From Chondrosia reniformis (lineage: Eukaryota; Porifera; Demospongiae; Chondrillida; Chondrillidae), in the NCBI GenBank assembly GCA_947172415.1, contig OX359198.1, positions 2,821,401 through 2,885,400 on the forward strand: DNA of 64,000 bases, given 5' to 3'. This document shows, piece by piece, positions 32,578 to 61,805 of the stretch; position 1 is the first letter of the stretch, and every line of letters begins with the position of its first letter. Below the pieces are notes generated by a model. The model was not told where the DNA came from and made no database searches. It saw only the letters and a program-made list of their open reading frames with translations. The translations under genes were made by a program, and so were the position numbers.

Positions 32578-34753
32578 TTCTAGTTGGATGTACTCATTGT
32601 ATGTACTAGTGTATGTACCGATTATATGTACTAATTGTATGTACTAGTTATATGAAATAGTTATAAACTTGTAGTATTTTGTAGTTATATGTGCTAGTTG
32701 CATGAAAACGTTGTATGCACTAGTTGATGTACTATTTATATATACTAGTTATATGTGTATCTTCTAGTTATTTTTACTAGTTGTATGTACTAGTTGTATG
32801 TATTAGTTTTATGTACTAGTTGTATGTACTAGTTGTAAACACTAAATATAGAGTACTTATTATATGTACTTTTTTATGTACTGGTTGTAAGTTCTAGATA
32901 AATGTACTGGTTGTATGTACTAGTTATATGCACTAGTGTTATGTCCTTGCTTTATGTACTACTTGGATATACTAGTTATGTACTAGTTGTATGGACTAGT
33001 TGTATGTACTAGTGGTGTGTACTAGTTTTATGTACTAGTTGTATGTACTAGTTGTATTTACTAGTTATATGTGTATGTTCTAGTTATATGTTCTACTTGT
33101 ATGTACAAGTTGTATGTATTAGTTATGTATTAGTTGTATGTAGTATTTATATGTAGTATTTATATATGTATGTTCTAGTTATCCTTACTAGTTCTATGTA
33201 CAAGTTATATGTACTACTTGCATGTACTACTTGTATGAAGTAGTTGTAAGTACTAGTTGTATGAACTAGGTCTATTTCTAGTTGTATGTATTTGCTACTA
33301 GTTGTATGTACTAGCTTTTTGTATATACTAGTACTAGTTATATTTCCTAGTTTTAGAAACTGCTTGTGTGTACTAGTTGTATGTACTAGTTGTATGTGGT
33401 AGTTGTATATATTGGTTGAATTCACTGTTTGTATGTGCTAGTGGTATGTACTAGTTGTATTTACTAGTTATATGTGTATGTTCTAGTTATATGTTCTACT
33501 TGTATGTACAAGTTGTATGTACTAGTTATGTATTAGTTGTATGTAATATTTAAATGTACTTGTTATATGTGAATGTTCTAGATATCCTTACTAGTTCTAA
33601 GTTGTTGTTTGTACGCGTTGTATGTACTACTTGTATATACTGTTTGTATGTACTAGTTGTATGTTCTGATTTTATATACCATTTATACGTACTAGTTGTA
33701 TGTACTAGTTATATATACTATTTATATGCACTAGTTTTATGTGTATGCTCTAATTATATGTACTACTGGTATGTAAAATTGTATGTACTAGTTGTATTTA
33801 CTAGTTGTATGTGCTAGTTATTTGTACTAGTTTCATAGAGTAGTTGCATGTACTAGTTGTAGGTTTTATTTATATGTACCAGTTTTATGTGAATGTTCAA
33901 GTTATCTGTACTAGTTGAATGTACAAGTTGTATGTAATAGTTATTTGTAGTAGTTGTATGTCCTAGTTATATGTACTTGGTGCATGTACTAGTTGTATGT
34001 AATTGTTGTAAACACTAGCTATAGTGAACCAGTTATATGTACTCTTTGTTTGCACTGGTTGTATGTTCTAGACATATGAACTGGTTCTATGGACTAGTGT
34101 ATGTACTAGTTATATGTACTAGTTGTATGTACTCTTTATATGTAATAGTTACATGTACTAGCTGTAATCACTACTTATAGGTATTAGTGATATGTAATAG
34201 TTGTATGTACTAGTTGTTTGTACTAGTTGTATGTACTATTCATATGTACAAGTTATATGTGTATGTTCTGGGTATCCTTACTTGTTTTATGTACAATTTG
34301 TATGTACGAATTTTATGTACTAGTTGTATGAACTAGTTAAATGTACTAGTTGTATGTACTATTTGTATGTACTAGTGGTAATCACTTGTTATAGGTACTA
34401 GTTAAATGCACAGGTTTTAAGTAATAGTTGTATGTACTAGTTGTATATTCTAGTTTTATGTACTTGTTGCATATACTAGTTATGTACTAGTTGTAAGGAC
34501 TAGTTGTATGTACTGGTTGTATGTACTAGTTGTATGTACTAGTTGTATTTACTAGTTGTATGTACTAGTTGTACGTATTGGTTGAATGTACTGTTTGTAT
34601 GTACTAGTTGTATGTACCAGTTATATGTGTATATTCTAGTTATATATTCTACTTGTATATACAAGTTGTAGGTACTAGTTATGTATTCGTTGTATGTAGT
34701 ATCTATATGTACTAGTTATATGTGTATGTACTAGTTATATGTTCTAGGTGTAT
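32578..34753 (+). repeat. 13-bp satellite, forward orientation (block 8)
   Basis: Forward monomers. The start (TAGTTGGATGTACTCATTG) matches 39,140, placing the R2-like and Naiad insertions in paralogous satellite blocks. The end (TTCTAGGTGTAT) matches 22,048 and 28,706, which lack the SINE insert. Open frames such as 33,554-33,817 are periodicity artefacts. Confidence 0.93.
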
Positions 34754-34827
34754 GAATAATCGATGTGATAATCAAACCACAAGTAATAATCAATGAAACA
34801 TCATAAAGAGGGAAAAACACGAAAGAA

Positions 34828-34899
34828 GCAATTGCTGGGAATTAAACCCAGGACAGCTGGTTATGATCACCAGTTGCTCTGCCACTGAGCTACAACTGC
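34828..34899 (-). tRNA. tRNA-like SINE head, copy 1 (pseudo-tRNA)
   Basis: On the minus strand it folds as a cloverleaf: acceptor GCAGTTG/CAATTGC, D-arm GCTCAGTGGCAGAGC, anticodon stem CTGGT/ACCAG, T-arm CTGGG/CCCAG. The anticodon loop is GATCATA and lacks the invariant U33, so it is a pseudo-tRNA serving as a Pol III promoter (A box TAGCTCAGTGG, B box here degenerate GGTTTAATTCC). Confidence 0.6.
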
Positions 34900-35168
34900 C
34901 ACAGCAATGCCTCCCCCATGTTCTCCCTCTTAAACTAACTACAACAAATAATCAGTGTACATTCTTAATTAGTGGTGATTCACTTCATCAGACAAGCTGA
35001 TAATCGGAGACCCAGCCCATTTCCAGTGGGAGGGGCCATCTTAACCAATGGGTCGCTGGCCACCATCAACCACTGGAGAGCTGGGTAAATCTATGAATAA
35101 TCGATGTGATAATCAAACCACAAGTAATAATCAATGAAACATCATAAAGAGGGAAAAACACGAAAGAA

Positions 35169-35240
35169 GCAATTGCTGGGAATTGAACCCAGGACAGCTG
35201 GTTATGACCACCAGTTGCTCTGCCACTGAGCTACAACTGC
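35169..35240 (-). tRNA. tRNA-like SINE head, copy 2 (pseudo-tRNA)
   Basis: Same cloverleaf as copy 1, with a better B box (GGTTCAATTCC) and anticodon loop GGTCATA. No U33, so a working tRNA is unlikely. Confidence 0.6.
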
Positions 35241-35509
35241 CACAGCAATGCCTCCCCCATGTTCTCCCTCTTAAACTCACTACAACAAATAATCAGTGTA
35301 CATTCTTAATTAGTGGTGATTCACTTCATCAGACAAGCTGATAATCGGAGACCCAGCCCATTTCCAGTGGGAGGGGCCATCTTAACCAATGGGTCGCTGG
35401 CCACCATCAACCACTGGAGAGCTGGGTAAATCTATGAATAATCAATATGATAGTCAAACCACAAGTAATAATCAATGAAACATCATAAAGAGGGAAAAAC
35501 ACGAAAGAA

Positions 35510-35581
35510 GCAATTGCTGGGAATTGAACCCAGGACAGCTGGTTATGACCACCAGTTGCTCTGCCACTGAGCTACAACTGC
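35510..35581 (-). tRNA. tRNA-like SINE head, copy 3 (pseudo-tRNA)
   Basis: Identical to copy 2 over the cloverleaf. The unit is cut off a few bases beyond the head, where satellite resumes. Confidence 0.6.
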
Positions 35582-35588
35582 CACAGCA

Positions 35589-36339
35589 AGTATGTACAAT
35601 TTGTGCATACTAGATGTATGTACTAGTTGTATGTACCAGTTTTCTGTTCCAGTTGTATGTACCACTTGCATGTACTAGTTGTATGTATCAGTTATTTGTA
35701 CTATTTGTATGTACAAGTTATATGTGTATGTTCTAGTTATCCTTACTAGTTCTATGTACAAGTTGTATGTACGACTTGTCTGTACTAGTTGTATGAACTA
35801 GTTTATGTACTAGTTGTATGTACTAGTGGTAATCACTAGTTATAGGTACTAGTTAAAGGTACTATTTGTAGGTACTAGTTGTACCTACTATTTGTATATT
35901 CTAGTTGTATGTACTAGTAATGTGTACTGGTTGTATGTACTAGTTATATGTACTAGTTGCATATACTAGTTATGTACTAGTTATATGGACTAGTTGTATG
36001 TAATGTTTGAATGTACTGTTTGTATTACCTTGTCGTATGTACTAGTTGTAGCTTCTAGTGGTAATCACTAGTTATAGGTACTAGTTATATGTACTATTTG
36101 TAGGTACTAGTTGTACGTACTAATTATATATTCTAGTTGTATGTACTAGTAATATGTACTAGATGTATAACCTAGTTTTATGTACTAGTTGCATATACTA
36201 GTTATGTACTAGTTGTATGGACTAGTTGTATGTACTGGTTTCATGAACTGGTTGAATGTACTAGTTGTATGTTTTGGTTAAATGTACTCTCTTATATGTA
36301 CTAGTTGTATGTACAAGTTGTATGTACTAGTTGTATGTA
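35589..36339 (+). repeat. 13-bp satellite, forward orientation (block 9)
   Basis: Forward monomers continuing the higher-order repeat interrupted by the SINE array. No genes. Confidence 0.93.
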
Positions 36340-37705: not shown

Positions 37706-39189
37706 TAAGTAATATGTACTATTTATATGTACTAGTTATATGTGTGTGTTCTAGTTATATGTACTAGTTGTATGTACCAGTTGTATGTATTAGTTGTATG
37801 TACCAGTTGTATGTATTAGTTGTATATACTGGTTTATTAATTAGTTGTAGGTACTAGTTGTATGTATTAGGCATATGCACTAGTTGTATGTACTCGTAAC
37901 TAACTGTATATTCTAGGCTTATGTACCAGTTGTATTTACTCATTACTAGTTGTATATATGTACTAATTGCACATACTAGTACTAGTTATATTTCCTGATA
38001 GTAGGAACTACTTGTGTGTATTAGTTGTATGTACTAGTTGTAGGACCTAGTTACTAGTTCTTTGTACTAGTTGTATATACTAGTTTTATGTACTAGTTCT
38101 AGTTATCTTTACTAGTTGTATGTGCTAGTTGTATGCACTAGTTGAATGTACTAGTTTTATGTACTAATTTTATGTACTACTTGTAGTACTAGTTGTATGA
38201 ACTAGTTGTATTTACTAGTTGTTTGTATTAGTTGTATGTACCAGTTGTACGTACTAGTTGTATGTACCAGTTGCATGTACTAGTTGTGTGTATTAGTTGT
38301 ATGTACTATTCATACGTAGTAGGTATATGTGTATGTTCTAGTTATCCTTATGAGTTCTATGTATAAGTTGTATGTACGAGTTGTATGTATTAGTTGTATG
38401 AACAAGTAAATGTACTAGTTATATGTACAAGTTGTAGGTGCTAGTTGTATGAACTAGGTGTATTTACTAGTTGTATGTACTAGTTGTATTTTTACTGTAT
38501 GTAACAGCGACCTCCTACTGACGAGATGAGCTACATGATTAATTTAATTGAAAATGTACTAGTTGTATGTACCAGTAGCATGTCTTAGAGTGTATGCATT
38601 AGTTGTATGTAATATTTATGTGTAGAAGTTATATGTGTATGTTCTAGTTATCCTTCCTAGTTCTATGTACAAGTTGTATATACGACTTGTATGTACTAGT
38701 TGTATGAACTAATTATTATATGTACTAGTTGTATGTACTAGTATTATGTACTAGTGGAAATCACTAGTTGGAAGAACTAGTTATATGTACTAGTTGTTGG
38801 TACTAGTTGTATGTAGTAGTTATAAATACCAGTTGTATGTACTTGTTGTATGCACTAGTTGTAAGTAATAGTGATATGTACTAGTGGTATGTAGTAGTTA
38901 TATGTACTAGTTGCATGTGCTAGTTGTATGTACTAGTTTAATGCACTAGCTATACGTACTAGTAATATGTACTAGTTGCATGTACTAGATATATGTACTA
39001 ACTGTAGGCACTAGTTATTTGTACTAGTTGTAAGAACTAGTTGTATGTACTGGTTGTATGTACTAGTTGTAATCTTTAGTTATAGGTATTAGTGATATGT
39101 ACTAGTTGTATGTACTAGTTGTATGTACTAGTTTTATTATATAGTTGGATGTAGTCGTTGTATGTACTAGTGTATGTACTGGTTATATG
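37706..39189 (+). repeat. 13-bp satellite, forward orientation (block 10)
   Basis: Forward monomers; the stretch 38,740-39,189 is paralogous to 30,000-30,333. A roughly 55-bp non-satellite patch (about 38,500-38,555, AACAGCGACCTCCTACTGAC) has no identified origin. No genes. Confidence 0.93.
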
Positions 39190-39329
39190 AAAAATCTAAT
39201 ATACCATTTTCCTACATGCTATATTCTGTAAAAAGAGCCTATAGGGGAACTAAACCTAAAGAGAGCTTTAGATGAAGATACAGGAGTCTTTTCTTCCTTC
39301 TTTTCCCTTCTTTCATCTTCTTCTCCACT

Positions 39330-39375
39330 GGGTCAGACAGCCGTTTCTGGGAATTCCACCCTTCATCAGTGATCC
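39330..39375 (-). ncRNA. Hammerhead ribozyme motif 3' of the Naiad ORF
   Basis: Read on the minus strand: stem I GGATCA, core CTGATGA, A, stem II GGG/CCC with a seven-base loop, A, GAAA, short stem III (AC-GGCT-GT), cleavage base C, then the stem I partner TGACCC. Stem I pairs five of six bases. The catalytic core is complete; the only irregularity is an A-A mismatch at the base of stem II. It lies 255 bp beyond the ORF on the same strand, fitting a pseudo-LTR ribozyme of Penelope-like elements. Confidence 0.7.
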
Positions 39376-39630
39376 TGGGAGTCTTTGTCTTTTTCTTTAT
39401 CTTGATCTTCTGTGAATCCTTGGCTCTCTATGCTAAATCTAGGGGCCTTATATACACTATTTTGGCGCCAAAAGTTAAATAAGGTGTTAACTAAGACACA
39501 TGATGAAATTTAATTTTATGAAAGGAATGTAGGTCCAATTAACTTTTATGAATTAATTATAAATCTATTAGTAAACTTGCTTGTACAGGTAAAACAGACT
39601 CAGCATAACTATAGACAAAAGTAGGACATA

Positions 39631-42592
39631 TTACGTAAGTCTACCCTTAGGTCTTCTAGTAGTAACATTTCTTTGGAGGTGGGGTAACACAATATGGGGT
39701 AACACAAGACAGTCCTTAAGCATACTAGCTACTTTTTGCTTATACTTGATTCTAACTAGAGGCTGCCGGGATAGGAAGGTTTTAAAGGTTGATTTTAGCT
39801 TAAAGTATTTGTAACCCTGCTTAATAAGTCTATTGCATAACTGCAAACTTTTAGCCTGAAAACTGGAGAAGTCACTACATATTCTGGAATACCTAATTGG
39901 GTTGTGAAATAAAGACACCATAGGCTGGGGTATTAGGAATATTACTATCTAAATGGGGGAAGTTTACTATATCAAAGTTAAAGTCCTCTCGCTTATCATA
40001 TACTTTAGTGATAAATTGATTGTTAGTAATGGTTATATCTAAGTCTAAAAAGGGGGATTTTTTAGGGCTGGTATTTGTCTTTTTAAGAATAAGTTCTTTG
40101 GGGTAAATATCACTAATTGACAGTTCAAAATCCTTGTTGTTAATACATAAAAGGTCATCAATATACCTATAAGTATTGGAAAATTTAATAGCTAGGGTGA
40201 TGTTATCCTTAAGTAGTCCTTTCATAAACTCATACTCATAGGCAAACAGAAAAAGATTAGCAACTACAGGGGCACAGTCAGTACCCATAGGGATACCTAC
40301 ACATTGCTTAAATACAGAACCGTCTACACATACATAAATGTTGTCAATAAGGTAATTAAAGAGCTCTACTAAATGAACAGCTGTGACTGCTTTATTGGAG
40401 ACATTGTTAGACCAAAAGGCTTTATCCTGACAGACTTCTATATATTGGGACTTCCTACAGGTATAGGCACTATGAATAAGGTTAGTAATCTTATCTTTAA
40501 GTAGGTTATGGGGGATCGCTGTATATAATGTAGAAAAATCAAAACTAGCTAGCTGGGTTTTTCTAGCGGGTATAGACCTAAGACTATCTAAGACTTCTAG
40601 TGAGTTTTCTACTATCCAAAAGGCATTAACACCAGTATTCCTATATATACCAAGGCAGTATTCTCTAAAATGTTTGAGAATTAGTCTGAGTGCCGAATTT
40701 AGAAATCTAGAAAGGGGTTTGGTAGTACATTTGTGAGAGGCAGCTATGAATCTGTAGTTGTAAGGGTTCTTATGTAGCTTAGGCATCCAGTAAAAAGAGG
40801 GAAGGTTACACCAGTCTGGTTTAGGTTCTAAGTTCTCTAGTTTTAAGAAATCTATGTGTTTCCTAATTAACTGTTGTGGTTCTACTGTACATTTAGCATA
40901 AGTGGAGGTACTGCCTAGTTCTTCATTAATAATTTGTCTATAGTAGGACTTACATATAAATATTATATTATTAGAGGCCTTATCGGCAGGGGCTATAACA
41001 TACTTATCATGTAGGTCTGCTAAGAATTTCTTAATTTTAGGGCAAGTAAGGGTCTTCTTGGCTACTGAGGATTTGGTATACAATTTAGACAGCTTAGAGA
41101 TCCTATCATTAATTTTCTTAAGTACAGTATTTTCCCACTCACTAAATACAGAAATAGATACATTTTCTCTACGGGCCCAGGTAATCTTATATTTTCTAAG
41201 ACCTTCCTTACACATTTTTAAAGCAGTTACCCAATTAAAGTTATTAGGTTCTCTAAATTTTGGTCCTTTCTTAAGAAGTTTTCTAAGTTTTGGGTTACTA
41301 ACAATACGTAGGTCACCTGTTAAAACATGGCCTAGGGGATTGTAAATGAAGGGGGACTTGTGACACTCACATGGTTCTGGTTTTCTAAAGACATCTGACT
41401 TAGAGGCTTGTGAAAAGTTAAAGATTTGAGGTCCTATTGGTTGGGTATACTTATATACTACACATGGGGGCTCTTTGTTTTGTATAAAGGGTGGGACAGT
41501 TTCTAACACTAACTTTTGGTTTAAGATACCTGAGAGGCCTTTTTTTTCTACACCTTTATTATGAAACACGATTTTAAGAAACCCTTCTGGACTTGTCGTT
41601 TTCGTTGGGTGTTTGGGAAGGCTGGCTGAAGCGCGTGCTTTAATAACGTCTTTAATCATTAGCATAAGTCTAAGCGGAAAAGGTGTTTCTGGGGTATCGA
41701 TGAGACATTGTACCGAGTTTAACAAACGATGAAGGTGTCGAGCTTGTAATGCAAAAGTATCGCGTTTAAGTTTGGCTAGAAAGCCCACGTTCTTGTAAAG
41801 TGGTAGTCGTTCTTTGAGCCATTCAGGGTCGAAGGTAGCGTTATTACTACTGCCTGTCGATTTTAGATTGGAGCGCCGATACCGTCTTTTATGAGATAAG
41901 CGATTAAAAAGGTTCCATACGATGATTTCTTTTTTAAGTTTCGAAATATTGCCAACGCCTTTAATGTTATCGTTAAGTCCATATGGATAAATAGAGCAGA
42001 GTTCCTTGTACCAGAACGCTTCTCTCAGTAGTCTGAGGCTAGTAGAATTAGGTGTCTCAGGTATCTGTTCTATGGGCATAATCAAGGCATCATCAAAACT
42101 ATGGTTATCAGAATTAAAGTGATTGTAAAGATACAGTGGCTTAAAACCTTTGGTACTAGTCCTATGGTTGTTCATTCTACTCCTAAGCATCTGAGAGGTT
42201 TCTCCTACATACTGTACATCACATTGTTTACAAGTAATAAGATACACAACATTCCTACTCTGGCATCCTAGGGGACCACAAGGGCTACGGACTTGATAGG
42301 TCCTGCCAGTAACTGAACTCTTAAAAGTAGGGCCAGTAACTAAAGAGGGACATGTTTTACACCGCTTATTGCTACACTTCTTAACTAGTGAGGGGCTAGC
42401 TTGCCCACCAGTAGGCACCCCTCTACCTATAGATGGGGGAGAGTTAGCTAACTTTTCATCACCAGGCACCCTACCTTTACCTAATGACGGGGAGCTTGTT
42501 AACCCGGGCGACCTCCCAGCCAGTATCCTATCTCTATACTTTGTACTTGTTATGATTGGAAATGGGTCAAGGACTAGACAAGCTAGTCCACA
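39631..42592 (-). pseudogene. Naiad Penelope-like polyprotein: N-terminal GIY-YIG, C-terminal RT, one frameshift
   Basis: The main frame (42,592 down to 39,893) has no upstream ATG and is open to the truncated 5' boundary. In order: Pro/Ser-rich leader with a repeated SPSLGKGR-like segment; Cys cluster CSNKRCKTC; GIY-YIG nuclease (NVVYLITCKQCDVQYVGE, RSRMNNHR, REAFWYKEL) about 70-160 residues from 42,469; a long middle region with CECHKSP; then RT with APADKASNN, FDFSTLYTAIPHNLL (about residue 640), GIPMGTDCAP (about 725) and YRYIDDLL (about 770). An extra base in a CCC run at about 39,897-39,900 shifts the frame. The second frame continues with IRYSRICSDFSSFQAKSL, the expected RT thumb, to a stop at 39,631. 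Apart from the truncation and this frameshift the coding region is intact, so the copy is young. Confidence 0.88.
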
Positions 42593-42593
42593 A

Positions 42594-45078
42594 ATATGTA
42601 CTAATTGTATGTACTGGTTATATGAACTAGTTATAAACTAGTAGTACGTTGTAGTTATATGTGCTAGTTGCATAAAAAAGTTGTATGCGTGTATTCTAGT
42701 TTTATGTACTGGTTGTATGTAGTAGTTGTATGTACTATTTATATGTACTTGTTGTATGTTTTAGTTGTATGTACCAGTTGTAAATACTGCCTAAATGCAT
42801 TAGTTGTATGTACTAGTTGTATGTACTTTTTGTATGTACTCTTTATATGTATTAGTTGTATGTACTAGATTTAAGTTCTAGTACTAGTTATGTTTATTAG
42901 TTTGAAGTATTAGTTGTATGTACTAGTTGTAAGTACTAGATGTAGGAACAAGTTACTAGTTCTATTTACTAGTTGTATATATGTACTAATACCAGTTATA
43001 TTTACCAGTTGTAGGAACTAGTTTTATATTCTAGCTCTATGTACTAGTTGTATGTACTACTTGTATGAACTAGTTGTAGGTACTAGTTGTATGAACTAGG
43101 TGTATTTACTAGTTGTATGTAGCAATTTTTGTATATACTAGTATAAGTTATAGGTACTAGTTGTAGGTACTAGTTGTATATTCTAGTAATATGAACTGGA
43201 TGTATGTACTATTTATAGGTACTTGTTGTATGTTCTAGTTGTATATACTAGTTGTAAGTATTACTTATATGTATTAGTTGTATCTCCTAGTTGTATGTAC
43301 TAGTTATATGTACTGGTTGTATGCCCTAGTTGTATGCACTAGTTGTATGTACAGTTTAAATGGACTAGTGATATTTGTATGCTGTGGTTATATGTTCTAG
43401 TTGTATGTACAGGTTATATGTACTAGTTAAATGTAGTAGATTAATGTACTAGTTGTATGTACTAGTTATTTGTACTAGATGTAGAACTAGTTGTATGTAC
43501 TAGTTGTGATCACTAGTTATAGGTAATAGATATATGTACTAGTAGTATGAACCAGTTGTACGTACTAGTTGTATATTCTAGTTGTATGTACTAGTAATAT
43601 GTACTGGTTGTATGTACTAGTTTTATGTACTACTTGTATGTCCCAATTATATGTACAAGTTGCATATATATACTAGTTATGTACTAGTTGTATGTACTAC
43701 TTGTATGAACTAGTTGTAAGTACTAGTTGTATGAACTAAATGTATTTACTAGATGTATGAATTCGCTACTAGTTGTATGTATATACCAGTTTTTTTATAT
43801 ACTAGTACGAGTTAAATTTACTAGTTGTAGGTACTAGTGGTAATCACTAGTTAAAGGTATCACTTATATGTACTAGTTGTAGGTAATACTTATAAATTCC
43901 AGTTGTATGTTCTAGTAATATATACTGGTTGTATGTACTTGCTTTATGTGCTAGTTTAATGTCCTAGTTTTATGTACTAGTTGCATATACTAGTTATGTA
44001 CTAGGAGTATGTATTAGGTGTATGTACTGGTTGTATGTACTACTTATATGGACTAGTTATATATACTGTTAATATGTACTAGTTATATTTGTATGTTCCA
44101 GTTATATGTACTTGATTGTATGTACTAGTTGTAGTACTAGTTGTATGTACTAGTTGTATCTACTAGTGGTATTGACAAATTACTTGTGGTATGTACAGGT
44201 TGTATATTCTATTTGTTTGTACTAGTGCTATGTACTAGTTATAAATACTAGTTGTATATACTAGTTGTATGTACTAATTGTATGTACTAGTTGTATGTAC
44301 TAGTTGTATGTACTACGTGTATGTACTAGTTGTATATACTAGTTTTATTTACTAATTGTATGTACTAGTTGTATCTACTAGTTGTATGTACAAATAACTA
44401 GATGGATGTACTAATTTGTATGTTCTAGTTGTATGTACTAGTTCTATTTACTTGTTATAGTACTAGTTGTATGTACTAGTTATATGTACTAGTTCTATGT
44501 ACAAGTTGTAGTACTAGTTGTATGTACTAATTTTAAATACGAGTTATAAATCCTAATTGTATGTATGAATTATATATATATATACTAGTATTTAATTCAA
44601 GTACATACAACAAGTATATACATGTACTAGTTATATGTAATAGTTTTGTGTACTAGTTATATGTACTTGTTGCATGTACTAGTTGTGTGTACTGGATGTA
44701 TCAACTAGTACTAGTTATATTTACTAGTTGTAGGAACTAGTTGTATAGAGTAGTTGTATGTACTAATTGTATGAACCAGTTATTGATGTTCTATTTCCTT
44801 GTTTTATGTAGAAGTTATATTTACCAGTTGTACTAATTGTATGTAATAGTTGTATATACCACGTGTTTGTACTAGATATGTACCAGTTGTATGTACTAGT
44901 TGTATGTACTAGCTATGCACTAATTGTAGGTTCTAGTACTAGCTATACAAGGTTCTAGGAATGTAAGAGTTGTATGTACCAGCTGTTTGTACTGGTTGTA
45001 TTAACTAGTTGTATGTGTTACTTGTGTGTACTAGTTTTATGTACTAGTTGTATGTAATAGTTACTAGTTGTATGTACT
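42594..45078 (+). repeat. 13-bp satellite, forward orientation (block 11)
   Basis: Forward monomers. The region 44,560-45,075 is paralogous to about 22,740-23,110, including the short flipped monomers. No genes. Confidence 0.93.
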
Positions 45079-45576
45079 ATGAAAAATGGGAGTTAATTGC
45101 ACTGAGCTGTGCAAAGGCTAGGATGATAAGCAAAAGTATTCACTGGAAGATATTACGCCAAACCAGCCAAGGGACCGAAGTCTAATCTTGGCTGGGGGAC
45201 CGAAGTCCTAATAAAAATGGCAACCAGTGATCGCCTCCCAGTCATCCAAGATGGAAAAAAATTCATCAAAGAACCACAGACAGCTGTTTCGCCCTTCTTA
45301 ACTTATTAATCAGCCACAAGTGAAACACTTGTGGTTTCATAATAAGTGAAGACGGTCATCCAACTCACCATCATTGAAGTGTACCACACTGATGAGCCCA
45401 AATGAGGGCGAAACAGCTGTCTGTGGTTCTTTGATGAATTTTTTCCATCTTGGATGACTGGGAGGCGATCACTGGTTGCCATTTTTAATAGGACTTCGGT
45501 CCCCCAGCCAAGATTAGACTTCGGTCCCTTGGCTGGTTTGGCGTAATATCTTCCAGTGAATACTTTTGCTTATCAT
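45079..45576. mobile_element. Foldback element carrying a hammerhead ribozyme
   Basis: Inverted arms 45,123-45,294 and 45,406-45,576 (about 172 bp, nearly identical) surround a 110-bp centre. A 44-bp unique tail lies at 45,079-45,122. The right arm begins inside the ribozyme stem II. The left arm carries the mirrored GGGCGAAAC segment, but on its own strand the core reads CTGATTA followed by an unpaired insert, so only the plus-strand ribozyme is complete. There is no ORF. It resembles two inverted Penelope pseudo-LTRs without a coding region. Confidence 0.75.
45383..45427 (+). ncRNA. Canonical type I hammerhead ribozyme
   Basis: All conserved elements are present. Stem I is ACCACA (45,383-45,388) with TGTGGT (45,422-45,427), six perfect pairs. 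The core is CTGATGA (45,389-45,395). Stem II is GCCC/GGGC (45,396-45,399 and 45,406-45,409) with loop AAATGA. GAAA (45,410-45,413) follows, and stem III lies in the palindrome ACAGCTGT (45,413-45,420). The cleavage base is C45,421 after GT, giving the standard GUC site. The short palindromic stem III is typical of retroelement hammerheads thought to work as dimers. Confidence 0.88.
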
Positions 45577-57987: not shown

Positions 57988-60642
57988 CTAGTCAACATAA
58001 GTAATTGGGATGTCTGAATGCACAGACTGACTGCCAACCACCAATGGTTCCGATGTATACTCCTTGCCATGTGTCCCTTTATCCGCAATCTCAACATAAG
58101 ATTGTGACATGCACTTGTCATTGTGTACCAAAGCACTACTACCCTTTACTGCTGCACTTGATTTCTCCTTATTTTGACTACAATTCTGGACAAAATGACC
58201 TGATATTAGCTCCTCTTTTTCTGATTCCTCACCACTATGAGCAGATTCTTGTCGTAGCCTCGCCATTTCCTCATGGACTCTCTTGTTTGCTGTCATCTTC
58301 TTTGGCTGAAAGTTCAGGAGGGCCACTCCATTCAGGGTGCGCACACGACTAAGAGCTACATAGGCCATTCCAGGTTCAACTACATCCTTCCCTAAATCCA
58401 TGACTGCTGCATCAAGAGACAATCCTTGCACCTTGTGAATAGTTGCTCCCCAGCCCAGAATCAAGGGAATCTGTGTTCTCTGCAGGAGTATACCTTCCTT
58501 TCCATAGAAATGTGCAGGAATAAGCTGAATTGGTACAACATCCTGTTCCTCCGAGACAACATGGTACCTTTGACAATTTCCCTCATTGGGATCTAAGAAT
58601 CTCACATATACCTCTGTGGGTAATTCACCAGGCATATTCTGATGCCTTGCATTTCTTGACCACTTGAAGCCTACAATTGTTCCTCTGGCACCATTCACCA
58701 AGCCATCACCACAGTTAATGTTTCATCGCAACATTAATCTAGCACCAACTGCTAGCCTCAGTATACGGGGCAGTGCAGCACAGTATTTATCATCTTGTGG
58801 AATGAGATGTTCGGGAACCTCATTGTATTTAATATTGGCATAAATTTACCCTCGACTCTCTAATATTGCATGCTCGGCATCAATACTATAGATTTGACTG
58901 CTCTTTGCTAGACTTTTTATCTGCATTTCATAGTGCCCATCAACATCTACTGTACGAGGATACAATGTCAGAGCTGTATCAAATGGGGAAGCCAGCAAAT
59001 CCACAGTCCCACCCGAAACCAAACGTGTTTGAAGAACTTTCACATCTTCATTGGTGTGCACGCCCGTCCTGATCCGATTAAGTATCTCTGAGAATGAAGC
59101 ATCATTCTGCTGACGCATGTTCACTTCCAGTTCAATCACCTTGAAGAAATCCCTCCAAAGGTGTGAAGCCAGTCACCCCGATGAGCGTCCAGGTTTCTGA
59201 CTGAATATAAAACTACCGTTCACTGGAGATAGCTGGTACAAGTCACCCACTGCAATGACATTCAAGCCACCAAAGATCTCATCATTACCATAAATCTCAC
59301 ACAGTCGACTGTGAACTGACTTCAGTATCTGGTAAGACACTATACTGAATTCATCAATGATGATGGTGTGCACTCCTTGCCACAGATTCCTCAAGTCATG
59401 CAGGGTTAGGGCATTCAGCTGCAATTGATGAGCAGTTCTGCCATGCTCCACCTAAAGCCGCAATGCTCTATGGATTGTGAGGCCTTCAATGTTGAAGGCT
59501 GCAACCCCGGTGGGTGCCATCAACATACAGGCATGCATCTCTTGACTCCCTGACATAGAACGTTCCATATGCTCTTTAATAGCCCTAATCACATGTGATT
59601 TTCCAGTGCCTGCTCCACCTGTCACAAACAGATGAAATGGTTCTGGAGGTTTGTGGCGTATTTTCATTCTGTGTTTGTGCAACTCACGAGTGTGGTGCAC
59701 AACAATGTCAAATGGAATATGCTGCTTTGTATTCAAACTTGCAATGAGTTGCCTAAATTCCCTATCCATAAGGGAGTGTCTACTCATTGCTCCAATGTCG
59801 TCATCATTGTCATTTAAGAGCATATGTTCTTCATCTATTGCACTCAGATTGTCATCATCAAGGCATGCTGGGTCCATGAAATGCTCTGGGTTCATCAACC
59901 CTCCTTCAGCCTCAATAAAGGGTTGTGCAGCATCCTCCTTTTGAGCCTGCTGTGCCATTGGGGCAACAACATCTTGGTAGGCATTGTCTTCCGAGGCTTG
60001 TAATTGCACAACAGCCTTCTGCACTTCATCTACAAAGGCATGATTGTGAGCATTCAAAACAACCATTTCTCCTTCTCGTACAATGAAAGCCTGCATTGCA
60101 GAAGCGTGACCTTTCAACAGATCCTCAGGTTCCTTCCTCCAAGGGATGTATAGTAGCAGCAAACTGTAGTAATAGTCATCACCATGACTTTCTACTGCCT
60201 GTACTGGGATTTGAAGACAGGCTTGCTTCCTTCTCAGACGAACCCATCCCATGTCATTCTGCAACTGGTTACGAGGCTGTGCTGGTCCATTTCCAACTTT
60301 CCCAACACCTCGTGTATCTACATCATACCACACTGTGAAGTGAGCCAAGGTCATGCTTGCAAATTCTGGTGTGTCAGGTCTAGAGGCATATCTATCAAAG
60401 ATACCAGGGGCAAAAATATCAGAGAAATCATCCTCCAATTCAAGCAATTCAGACCTACTCTTGAGTAACCGCGTTCTCTTTTCTAGTCTGGTGGTGTTAA
60501 GGAATACAACTTTTCTTGAATTTTCTTTCAGAGGCAAGTGACACAATCGATATGCTGCCTCCTGGGCACTCAACTCACGATGGGTCAGCATTGTGTTGCC
60601 AATCGTTGACAGACGCTTTCTTGTTGAAGCCTGAGGAGGCAA
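57988..60642 (-). pseudogene. Helitron PIF1-like helicase domain with four in-frame stops
   Basis: One continuous frame broken only by nonsense codons at about 59,452 (TAG), 59,173 (TGA), 58,846 (TAA) and 58,722 (TGA, where Arg is expected). Motifs: HRELSAQEAAYRL near the start; Walker A GGAGTGKSHV (about 59,590-59,620); Walker B TIIIDEFSIVS; GDLYQLSPV; LPRILRLAVGARLML before the fourth stop; then GWGATIHKVQGLSLD and GMAYVALSRVRTLNGVALL, the C-terminal helicase motifs. In Helitrons this 5'-to-3' helicase unwinds DNA during rolling-circle transposition. The last about 60 residues are Ser/Glu-rich with no known motif. Confidence 0.88.
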
Positions 60643-61805
60643 TTTTCCGATGTATCTCGGATAGCTTTCCTGACCTCTTCACTTTCTGATTTACACATGT
60701 AGGAACACACATATGCAGCTGTGCCATATACTGATCCAATCAATTGTACATCCATATTAGCTTTCCATGCCTTCAGAAGGTGTGTATAGTATGGATTGCA
60801 GTTTTCTTCCCTTGCTGATCTCTTCAAGACATAGAACCTGGACTTGTTTCCAGGATCATCATGGCTTTTCAGCCGTGTATCTTCTGACAGAGGTTGAGGA
60901 AAATCAAATCGGCAGTCTGCCACATTTTTCCCCTTTGTGTTGCTTTCCTGCAAGTTGATGTATGATGGTGCTGCTGCACTCTCAACACCAATGAACGAAG
61001 TTCTTCATCTTTGCAACCTTGTGTTGGAATATTCACAGAAATGTAACTAACTGTGGAGCAATCTGCCTTCCAGCTGTAGTATCTAAGTTTGGAGCATCCC
61101 TTATCCACCACATGGAATGGACATGTGGAGATCCCCTCAACTGGAATTCAATTCTCCAAATGTTTTCAACTACCTCACCAATAGGTTGCCCAGATCCTTT
61201 AATCACTTCCCTGAGGAACCATTGAAAGCGATGTGCAAAATGCCTAGCTGTAACCATTGGATTTGTCCTCATCAGTTCTCTCCTCTCACTGGCTGATAAA
61301 TTAGCTGCCTGTTCCTCTGACAGATTCTGACCCATACTCCTGCTTAGCACTATCATCAAGTCCACCAATTATATCGTCAGCACTCAGTGTGACAAAGAAT
61401 GTGGGAGGACCTAGCAAATAGCTGGATCTTTAATGAGTTCCAATAAGCCTTTGTGCCACGAATATCTCTCATGAAGCTATAACAACTTTCACGCAAGTGA
61501 GGGTTATTTTCCCGGGGTCCTCGCAGCAAACCAGCTGTGAGTAGCTCCTTCTCATTGGTTTCCTTGTTAGACTTCTCACAGTGGCCTATTCTGAATGATC
61601 GCATCCTCATAGCAATGGAAGTGCTGCTCTGCAATTTCAGGGCTTCTACAATGTTACAGGCCCAAAAGATATAAGCAGGATGACATGCCCATCTTGAGTC
61701 AGCACTAAGCATTCTTGTTTGAAAATATTCTAGAGGTGTAACTTTGACTTCTCTGATGGTGCCAAAACCAGTTTCACCATTGGGGTAAAGGGTCGGAAAA
61801 GCCAA
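60585..61805 (-). pseudogene. Helitron Rep (HUH, Y2) endonuclease, frameshifted
   Basis: Split over several frames. 61,377-61,805: AFPTLYPNGETGFG..., ADSRWACHPAYIFWA, the Helitron-like N-terminal domain. 61,033-61,368: HFAHRFQWFLREVI and IEFQLRGSPHVHSMWW; HVH (61,117-61,125) is the metal-binding HUH motif. 60,869-61,111: SYISVNIPTQGCKDEELRSL. 60,585-60,953: CRFDFPQPLSEDTRL and YVCSYMCK, with the two catalytic tyrosines of the Y2 motif. Frameshifts lie near 60,640, 60,950, 61,040-61,060 and 61,370. Rep nicks and joins single strands during rolling-circle transposition. Confidence 0.85.

What the first reader, a model, noticed from the sequence alone, without database searches (positions are those of the whole stretch)
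45383..45427. Complete hammerhead ribozyme inside a coding-free foldback element
All core bases (CTGATGA, GAAA), a perfect six-pair stem I, a perfect four-pair stem II, the palindromic short stem III ACAGCTGT and a GUC site are visible. It sits in a 500-bp inverted-repeat element in satellite DNA with no ORF. The layout looks like paired Penelope pseudo-LTRs or a retrozyme-like unit; the mirrored copy in the left arm has lost its core.
Basis: partly seen in the sequence, partly recalled or inferred. Interest (0 to 1): 0.78.

Follow-up and report, generated by a model that had tools for sequence, protein, structure and literature searches.

The report
Sponge hammerhead retroelement with Penelope-style insertion
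A small non-coding jumping element in a sponge genome carries a self-cutting RNA (a hammerhead ribozyme), and the way its copies are inserted points to Penelope-type retrotransposons as the machinery that moves it, a question left open for such elements in animals.

Summary
A type I hammerhead lies at 45383-45427 (+): Rfam RF00163, 34.6 bits, cut-off 34. It sits in a foldback element (45079-45576) inside a 13-bp satellite. Contig lengths identify the genome as the sponge Chondrosia reniformis, chromosome 10.

It is one copy of a repeat: 541 similar hammerhead cores genome-wide, 0 for the reversed pattern, in two families with 363-bp and 354-bp tandem units. By anatomy these are non-autonomous retrozymes.

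The new point is how they insert. Copies sit head to head, both outer ends being 3' ends of the unit. Two 3' ends recur, a short one and a long one (a 44-nt tail in the window's family). In 26 of 27 scorable inserts, of 48 examined, one outer end is short and the other long. Of 16 scorable non-satellite inserts, 14 show likely target-site duplications. This matches published Penelope anatomy (PMC3846280, passages). A Penelope-type element in this genome shows the same pairing in 3 of 3 inserts with both ends visible.

Best reading: retrozymes mobilised by Penelope-type enzymes that prime on both DNA strands. Cleavage, circular RNA and the driving enzyme were not tested.

The parts
45079..45576 (.). 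whole foldback retrozyme insert (498 bp)
45079..45295 (-). left arm: minus-strand copy, long 3' end outward, lacking the 5' half of the hammerhead
   Evidence: L031 = window: U147-366 on the minus strand
45079..45122 (-). 44-nt tail present only on the left end, with a stem-loop and the long 3' end
45273..45294 (-). 3' half of the hammerhead left in the left arm
45296..45355 (.). near-palindromic junction segment between the arms (matches unit positions 35-94 on both strands)
45356..45576 (+). rest of the right arm: plus-strand copy, short 3' end outward (ends GCTTATCAT at 45576)
45383..45427 (+). type I hammerhead ribozyme; predicted cut 45421/45422
   Evidence: 34.6 bits; covariation
39893..42637 (-). 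914-aa open frame of a neighbouring Penelope-like element with N-terminal GIY-YIG (aa 129-162) and reverse transcriptase (aa 621-835); context, not part of the insert
   Evidence: both Pfam scores are just under their cut-offs (22.1 of 22.6 and 23.3 of 29.6 bits)
39336..39369 (-). hammerhead-like core in the 3' UTR of that Penelope-like element; below Rfam's cut-off, stem II closing pair broken
   Evidence: not among the matches

Best explanation
The site is one insertion of a non-autonomous retrozyme. Shown from sequence: a non-coding 363-bp unit with a conserved, covarying hammerhead is repeated through the genome, often in tandem, and its copies are inserted head to head with one long and one short 3' end and, outside satellite, usually a target-site duplication. 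Inferred: tandem units are transcribed; the RNA can cut itself at sites equivalent to 45421/45422 and may circularise; a Penelope-type enzyme (reverse transcriptase plus GIY-YIG endonuclease, most likely the C-terminal-endonuclease type found in this genome, acting in trans) recognises the stem-loop between the two start sites, makes staggered nicks in AT-rich or satellite DNA, and primes a cDNA from each nicked strand, one starting at the short site and one at the long site; the two cDNAs are then joined at their inner ends. In this copy the join removed the front half of the left ribozyme.
For: Rfam match. 541 related cores, reversed control 0. Covariation: 3 of 14 pairs and 17 cells changed on both sides, 0 of 500 shuffles reach 17 cells, slid controls 0. 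Ribozyme letters vary less than the rest, 9/1497 against 278/11270. Circular folds better than shuffles, z -5.75 and -6.43. One short and one long end in 15 of 15 and 11 of 12 scorable inserts. Among 100 listed cores, neighbours under 1 kb apart are minus-plus 11, plus-minus 0, same strand 12. Shared flank words of 7 nt or more in 14 of 16 inserts against 5.4% of 240 mismatched pairs. Same pairing in 3 of 3 inserts of a Penelope-type element with both ends visible. Published Penelope anatomy (PMC3846280) and both-strand extension from two internal sites in vitro (PMC11167929).
Against: No expression, cleavage or priming data. 21 of 48 inserts are single-orientation or have an unclassifiable end, and 1 scorable insert is long/long. 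Short/long windows were chosen after looking. No clear sequence identity between the retrozyme tails and the Penelope-type tail, only a similar plan. The adjacent N-terminal-endonuclease element does not show the rule: 13 of 15 uninterrupted 3' pieces end at one site, and in L089 both outer ends are of that one kind. The in vitro study saw no difference in start site between strands and found the hammerhead not needed for insertion. Inner cDNA ends are not concentrated at the ribozyme cut (only U166 and U167 are within 4 nt of U163). The ribozyme window ranks only 36th of 363 for conservation.
Confidence: 0.72

Rival explanations
1. Self-primed foldback: one cDNA or an antisense transcript folds back and primes its own second strand, giving a head-to-head mirror repeat, as proposed for Penelope inverted pLTRs in PMC3846280.
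For: The two arms of a family-A insert resemble each other more than arms of other inserts: mean difference 0.032 against 0.050, permutation p 2e-4, n 11. A palindromic stretch lies at the junction here.
Against: A mirror copy should carry the tail on both ends or neither; 26 of 27 scorable inserts carry it on one only. Both outer ends adjoin duplicated target. Arm similarity is also expected if both cDNAs came from one RNA or one source. Family B is uninformative (n 5, p 0.22).
Confidence: 0.17
2. The elements are solo pLTR pairs of an autonomous Penelope family with this pLTR, not an independent retrozyme.
For: Layout identical to inverted pLTRs with one tail (PMC3846280); hammerheads occur in Penelope pLTRs (PMC7761336 passages).
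Against: Of 30 GIY-YIG loci, 1 has a 73-nt diverged piece of the 363-bp unit and 0 the 354-bp unit. Flanks of non-satellite inserts share little beyond the unit apart from pieces of other repeats. Only 30 of 150 scored GIY-YIG hits were fetched, with 1.5 kb each side, so such a family could have been missed.
Confidence: 0.08
3. A by-product of satellite DNA: an inverted repeat formed by recombination, with a chance or decayed hammerhead.
For: The window copy lies in a 13-bp satellite and its left ribozyme is broken.
Against: 541 cores; 13 of 24 family-A and 19 of 24 family-B inserts have no satellite flank; target-site duplications; covariation.
Confidence: 0.02

Closest known systems
Metazoan non-LTR retrozymes (PMC7229834: main text parts 1-3, Discussion and passages read)
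   Same: Non-coding unit in the stated size range (about 150-450 bp), G+C under 50%, type I hammerhead with weak helix III, tandem copies, highly self-paired predicted circle, TSD longer than 4 bp.
   Different: Described there as tandem repeats; the word 'inverted' occurs 0 times in that main text. Here copies are inserted head to head with one tailed and one untailed end. Circular RNA untested here.
Penelope-like elements with GIY-YIG endonuclease (PMC3846280 passages and Discussion; PMC11167929 parts 1-2 and passages)
   Same: Head-to-head terminal copies, a tail on one of them, TSD of about 8-10 bp there and 6-14 nt shared words here, hammerhead, preference for AT-rich sequence, insertion into own-type ends.
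   Different: No ORF in the unit. The short/long pairing is near-strict in this sample, whereas the papers call the tail optional and report no start-site difference between strands.
Penelope hammerheads of the minimal type (passages of PMC7761336, PMC6155905)
   Same: Type I hammerhead in Penelope-related repeats, possibly acting as a dimer.
   Different: Minimal Penelope hammerheads are said to lack helix III; this one has a 2-pair helix III with an AGCU tetraloop, closer to the retrozyme kind.

Membership tests
Type I hammerhead ribozyme (RF00163) | score over Rfam's gathering threshold with an intact core | tested here: met
   34.6 against 34 bits; family members up to 43.1 bits
Type I hammerhead ribozyme (RF00163) | helices supported by covariation | tested here: met
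   helices I and II only, helix III never varies
Type I hammerhead ribozyme (RF00163) | self-cleavage after the GUC | not testable with these tools
   needs transcription in vitro
Metazoan non-LTR retrozyme | tandem units of about 150-450 bp with a type I hammerhead, G+C under 50%, no LTR or ORF | tested here: met
   363 and 354 bp, 45% G+C; arrays of up to 4; no ORF of 200 aa or more in the window copy
Metazoan non-LTR retrozyme | target-site duplications longer than 4 bp | tested here: met
   14 of 16 non-satellite inserts share 7 nt or more; 5.4% of mismatched pairs do, null maximum 12
Metazoan non-LTR retrozyme | expressed as linear and circular RNA | not testable with these tools
   no RNA data at hand; predicted circle is strongly self-paired
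Penelope-like element insertion | head-to-head terminal copies with a tail on one of them | tested here: met
   26 of 27 scorable of 48 inserts; 11 minus-plus and 0 plus-minus neighbours
Autonomous Penelope-like element | ORF with reverse transcriptase and GIY-YIG within the element | tested here: not met
   no ORF in the unit; units not found bounding GIY-YIG ORFs in 30 loci except one 73-nt piece

The most novel reading that the evidence does not exclude
Retrozymes are parasites of Penelope-type enzymes, and each insertion is made by two-ended target-primed reverse transcription: an enzyme complex nicks both DNA strands and starts one cDNA at each of two fixed sites flanking a stem-loop in the RNA, one of each per insertion, so the short/long pairing is a built-in asymmetry of the complex. 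The same rule would explain the inverted pLTRs and the 'optional tail' of Penelope elements in general.
Probability: 0.5. Interest if true: 0.78.

Novelty: new variant of a known kind. Interest (0 to 1): 0.62.

Why it matters
PMC7229834 (Discussion) and PMC7761336 (passages) leave open which enzyme moves animal retrozymes and name Penelope-like elements as likely candidates, on grounds of shared hammerheads, tandem copies and co-occurrence. Here the insertions themselves carry the Penelope anatomy in two retrozyme families, so the question becomes directly testable. The near-strict short/long pairing also turns the loosely described Penelope 'tail' into a rule about how two cDNAs are started per insertion. 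No paper on hammerhead elements in sponges turned up in the held library: 0 papers for hammerhead ribozyme + sponge + Porifera, and none of the 10 listed (of 150) holds both hammerhead ribozyme and Amphimedon. That library lacks most subscription papers.

Tried and rejected
The first genome pattern had a wrong stem II spacing and found 0 (its reversed control found 1); one search used the right one. Satellite by-product: rejected by dispersed copies with TSDs. The neighbouring N-terminal-endonuclease element as driver: not preferred, because its 3' pieces end at one site and L089 shows the same kind of end on both outer sides. First end-count patterns for that element found few copies because the window copy lacks 6 nt there (6 and 5 matches); with the common form 1,314 and 1,368. 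These counts cannot separate tailed from untailed ends. Conservation measured against one reference copy looked nearly flat (2.5% against 2.9%, rank 193 of 363) because that copy is the odd one; per-column majority counting gave 0.6% against 2.5%, rank 36 of 363, so the ribozyme is among the conserved parts and is not the most conserved one. Cleaved monomer as template: no support from inner ends. No solved structure matches the 914-aa frame at E 0.01. The first ribozyme alignment was misframed in three rows and was redone.

Full report
Where it is. The window is G000:C10:2821401-2885400. The locus is on chromosome 10 in a 13-bp satellite (unit TAGTTGTATGTAC) that fills about half of the window (lag-13 identity over 0.45 in 52%). 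Scaling the genome count of a 20-mer (194,337 matches) by the window's (792) puts the satellite at roughly 8 Mb, about 7% of the genome. That is my arithmetic and a rough estimate.

The ribozyme. Rfam finds the type I hammerhead at exactly 45383-45427 with 34.6 bits, just over the cut-off of 34. The margin is thin, so the family evidence matters more. A genome-wide Rfam search scored 73 matches out of 11,921 first-look candidates, 51 of them over the cut-off, the best 43.1 bits; the same search rang in 11 of 14 control genomes, over the cut-off in none, and the window's own site was not among the 73 scored. A core pattern with up to 3 mismatches gives 541 places (272 + 269) and 0 for the reversed control. 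Two families appear: stem I ACCACA/TGTGGT (window, 'A') and GCCATA/TATGGC ('B'). Over 13 variants 98.4% of cells pair, 3 of 14 pairs change on both sides in 17 cells; 0 of 500 shuffles reach 17 cells and 70 of 500 reach 3 pairs; the slid controls give none. These changes mostly separate the two families, so they are few independent events. With an extended stem I, 6 of 17 pairs change on both sides; 3 of its 18 rows (L002, L005, L032) have unrelated upstream sequence and were kept in.

The unit. Distance between successive cut sites in real tandems is 363 nt (A) and 354 nt (B); both are 45% G+C and fold as circles better than shuffles (z -5.75 and -6.43, 100 shuffles each). Among the 100 cores listed there are arrays of four at 359-362 bp. 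In family-A loci fetched by whole-element similarity, 9 of 1497 ribozyme letters and 278 of 11,270 others differ from the column majority (Fisher p 2e-7, which ignores shared ancestry; rank 36 of 363 windows).

The insertion rule. Mapping the units on L031-L060 and on L001-L030 shows one layout again and again: minus copies left, plus copies right, both outer ends being 3' ends of the unit. Two 3' ends recur: short (A319, B about 140) and long (A363, B about 195-205). Clustering gave 24 inserts per family. Head to head with both outer ends classifiable: 15 and 12. One short plus one long: 15 of 15 and 11 of 12; the exception is L003, long/long with a short right piece. The binomial tail for 26 of 27 at 0.5 is 2e-7. 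The inserts in L034 and L057 have near-identical left flanks (100 of 101 letters) and may be one duplicated event, which would make it 25 of 26. The other 21 inserts have one orientation only or an unclassifiable end. The end windows were set. A count that does not depend on them: among 100 listed cores, neighbours under 1 kb apart are minus-plus 11 times, plus-minus 0, same strand 12. In both families the tail has the same plan: short site, stem-loop, T-run ending in CAT or CCAT.

Target sites. Of 16 scorable non-satellite inserts 14 share 7 nt or more across the insert (range 6-14), against 5.4% of 240 mismatched pairs, whose maximum is 12. Satellite adjoins 11 of 24 A and 5 of 24 B inserts, more than the rough 7%, but these loci were not a random sample and old copies may last longer in satellite. 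Two A inserts (L035, L039) lie in the 3' end of the N-terminal-endonuclease Penelope-like element at nearly the same place.

Which enzyme. Penelope elements are described with inverted pLTRs, a 31-bp tail at the 3' end of one of them, and 8-10 bp TSDs (PMC3846280, passages and Discussion). A purified Penelope-like protein cuts and extends both DNA strands and starts at two adjacent internal sites, the tail being the stretch between (PMC11167929, parts 1-2 and passages). That study saw no start-site difference between strands and no need for the hammerhead in insertion in vitro, so the one-of-each rule is not in it. In this genome 150 GIY-YIG hits were scored and 30 fetched. The C-terminal-endonuclease kind (for example L087) ends either at CCCAAAGATA or about 38 nt further on. 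In the 3 inserts whose two ends I could see (L070, L074, a small one in L035) one end is short and the other long; L070 and L035 show duplications of about 10 and 9 bp, L074 none that I could see. The N-terminal-endonuclease kind in the window behaves differently: 13 of 15 uninterrupted 3' pieces end at TTTTTCAT (two of the 13, L063 and L085, are tandem junctions, and L077/L078 share flanks), and L089 has that end on both outer sides. So the C-terminal kind is the better candidate, although the T-rich long end of the retrozymes resembles the other kind.

One RNA or two. In family A the arms of an insert resemble each other more than arms of other inserts (0.032 against 0.050, permutation p 2e-4, closest or tied in 8 of 11; L034 and L057 overlap the same two inserts), which suggests one RNA or one source; family B is uninformative (n 5, p 0.22). 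Copies run past the ribozyme cut, so a cut linear monomer is not the usual template; an uncut tandem transcript or a circle is.

Not shown. No cleavage, transcript, circle, binding or priming was measured. The names Poseidon-type (C-terminal endonuclease) and Naiad-type (N-terminal) are recalled and rest on domain order; no tree was made. The best-explanation odds (0.72) cover the retrozyme-plus-Penelope reading; the strict two-start mechanism alone is put at 0.5.

Verdict. It is a sponge retrozyme whose insertions carry Penelope anatomy, with a short/long pairing rule that I did not see stated in the parts read of PMC7229834, PMC11167929, PMC3846280, PMC7761336, PMC6155905 and PMC8490949.

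Noticed in passing
34751-35589 (-): A 341-bp tandem repeat (2.5 copies, 98% matches) carries three tRNA-like genes (Rfam tRNA 52-55 bits) that ARAGORN, with the bacterial code, reads as tRNA-SeC(tca); the anticodon assignment is doubtful.
   Followed up: no
39187-42594 (-): A Penelope-like element with the endonuclease ahead of the reverse transcriptase in one 914-aa frame sits in the satellite 3 kb from the hammerhead element; its 3' end matches at 1,300 or more places in the genome.
   Followed up: partly
L018, L035, L039, L060, L061: Pieces of about 235 bp of that element's 3' UTR start at nearly the same 5' point, which may be a third short non-autonomous family with a degenerate hammerhead.
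   Followed up: no
G000 C2:5368945-5368982 and C2:5447627-5447664: Two copies of that element's 3' end abut tail to tail at the same site, as if it had inserted into its own 3' end.
   Followed up: no
window about 19.0-20.0 kb: The 13-bp satellite changes strand here: left arrays read ACTAGTACATACA, right ones TAGTTGTATGTAC.
   Followed up: no
57988-60678 (-): Two open frames with AAA/PIF1-type helicase matches, possibly a Helitron-like remnant (recalled, not tested).
   Followed up: no
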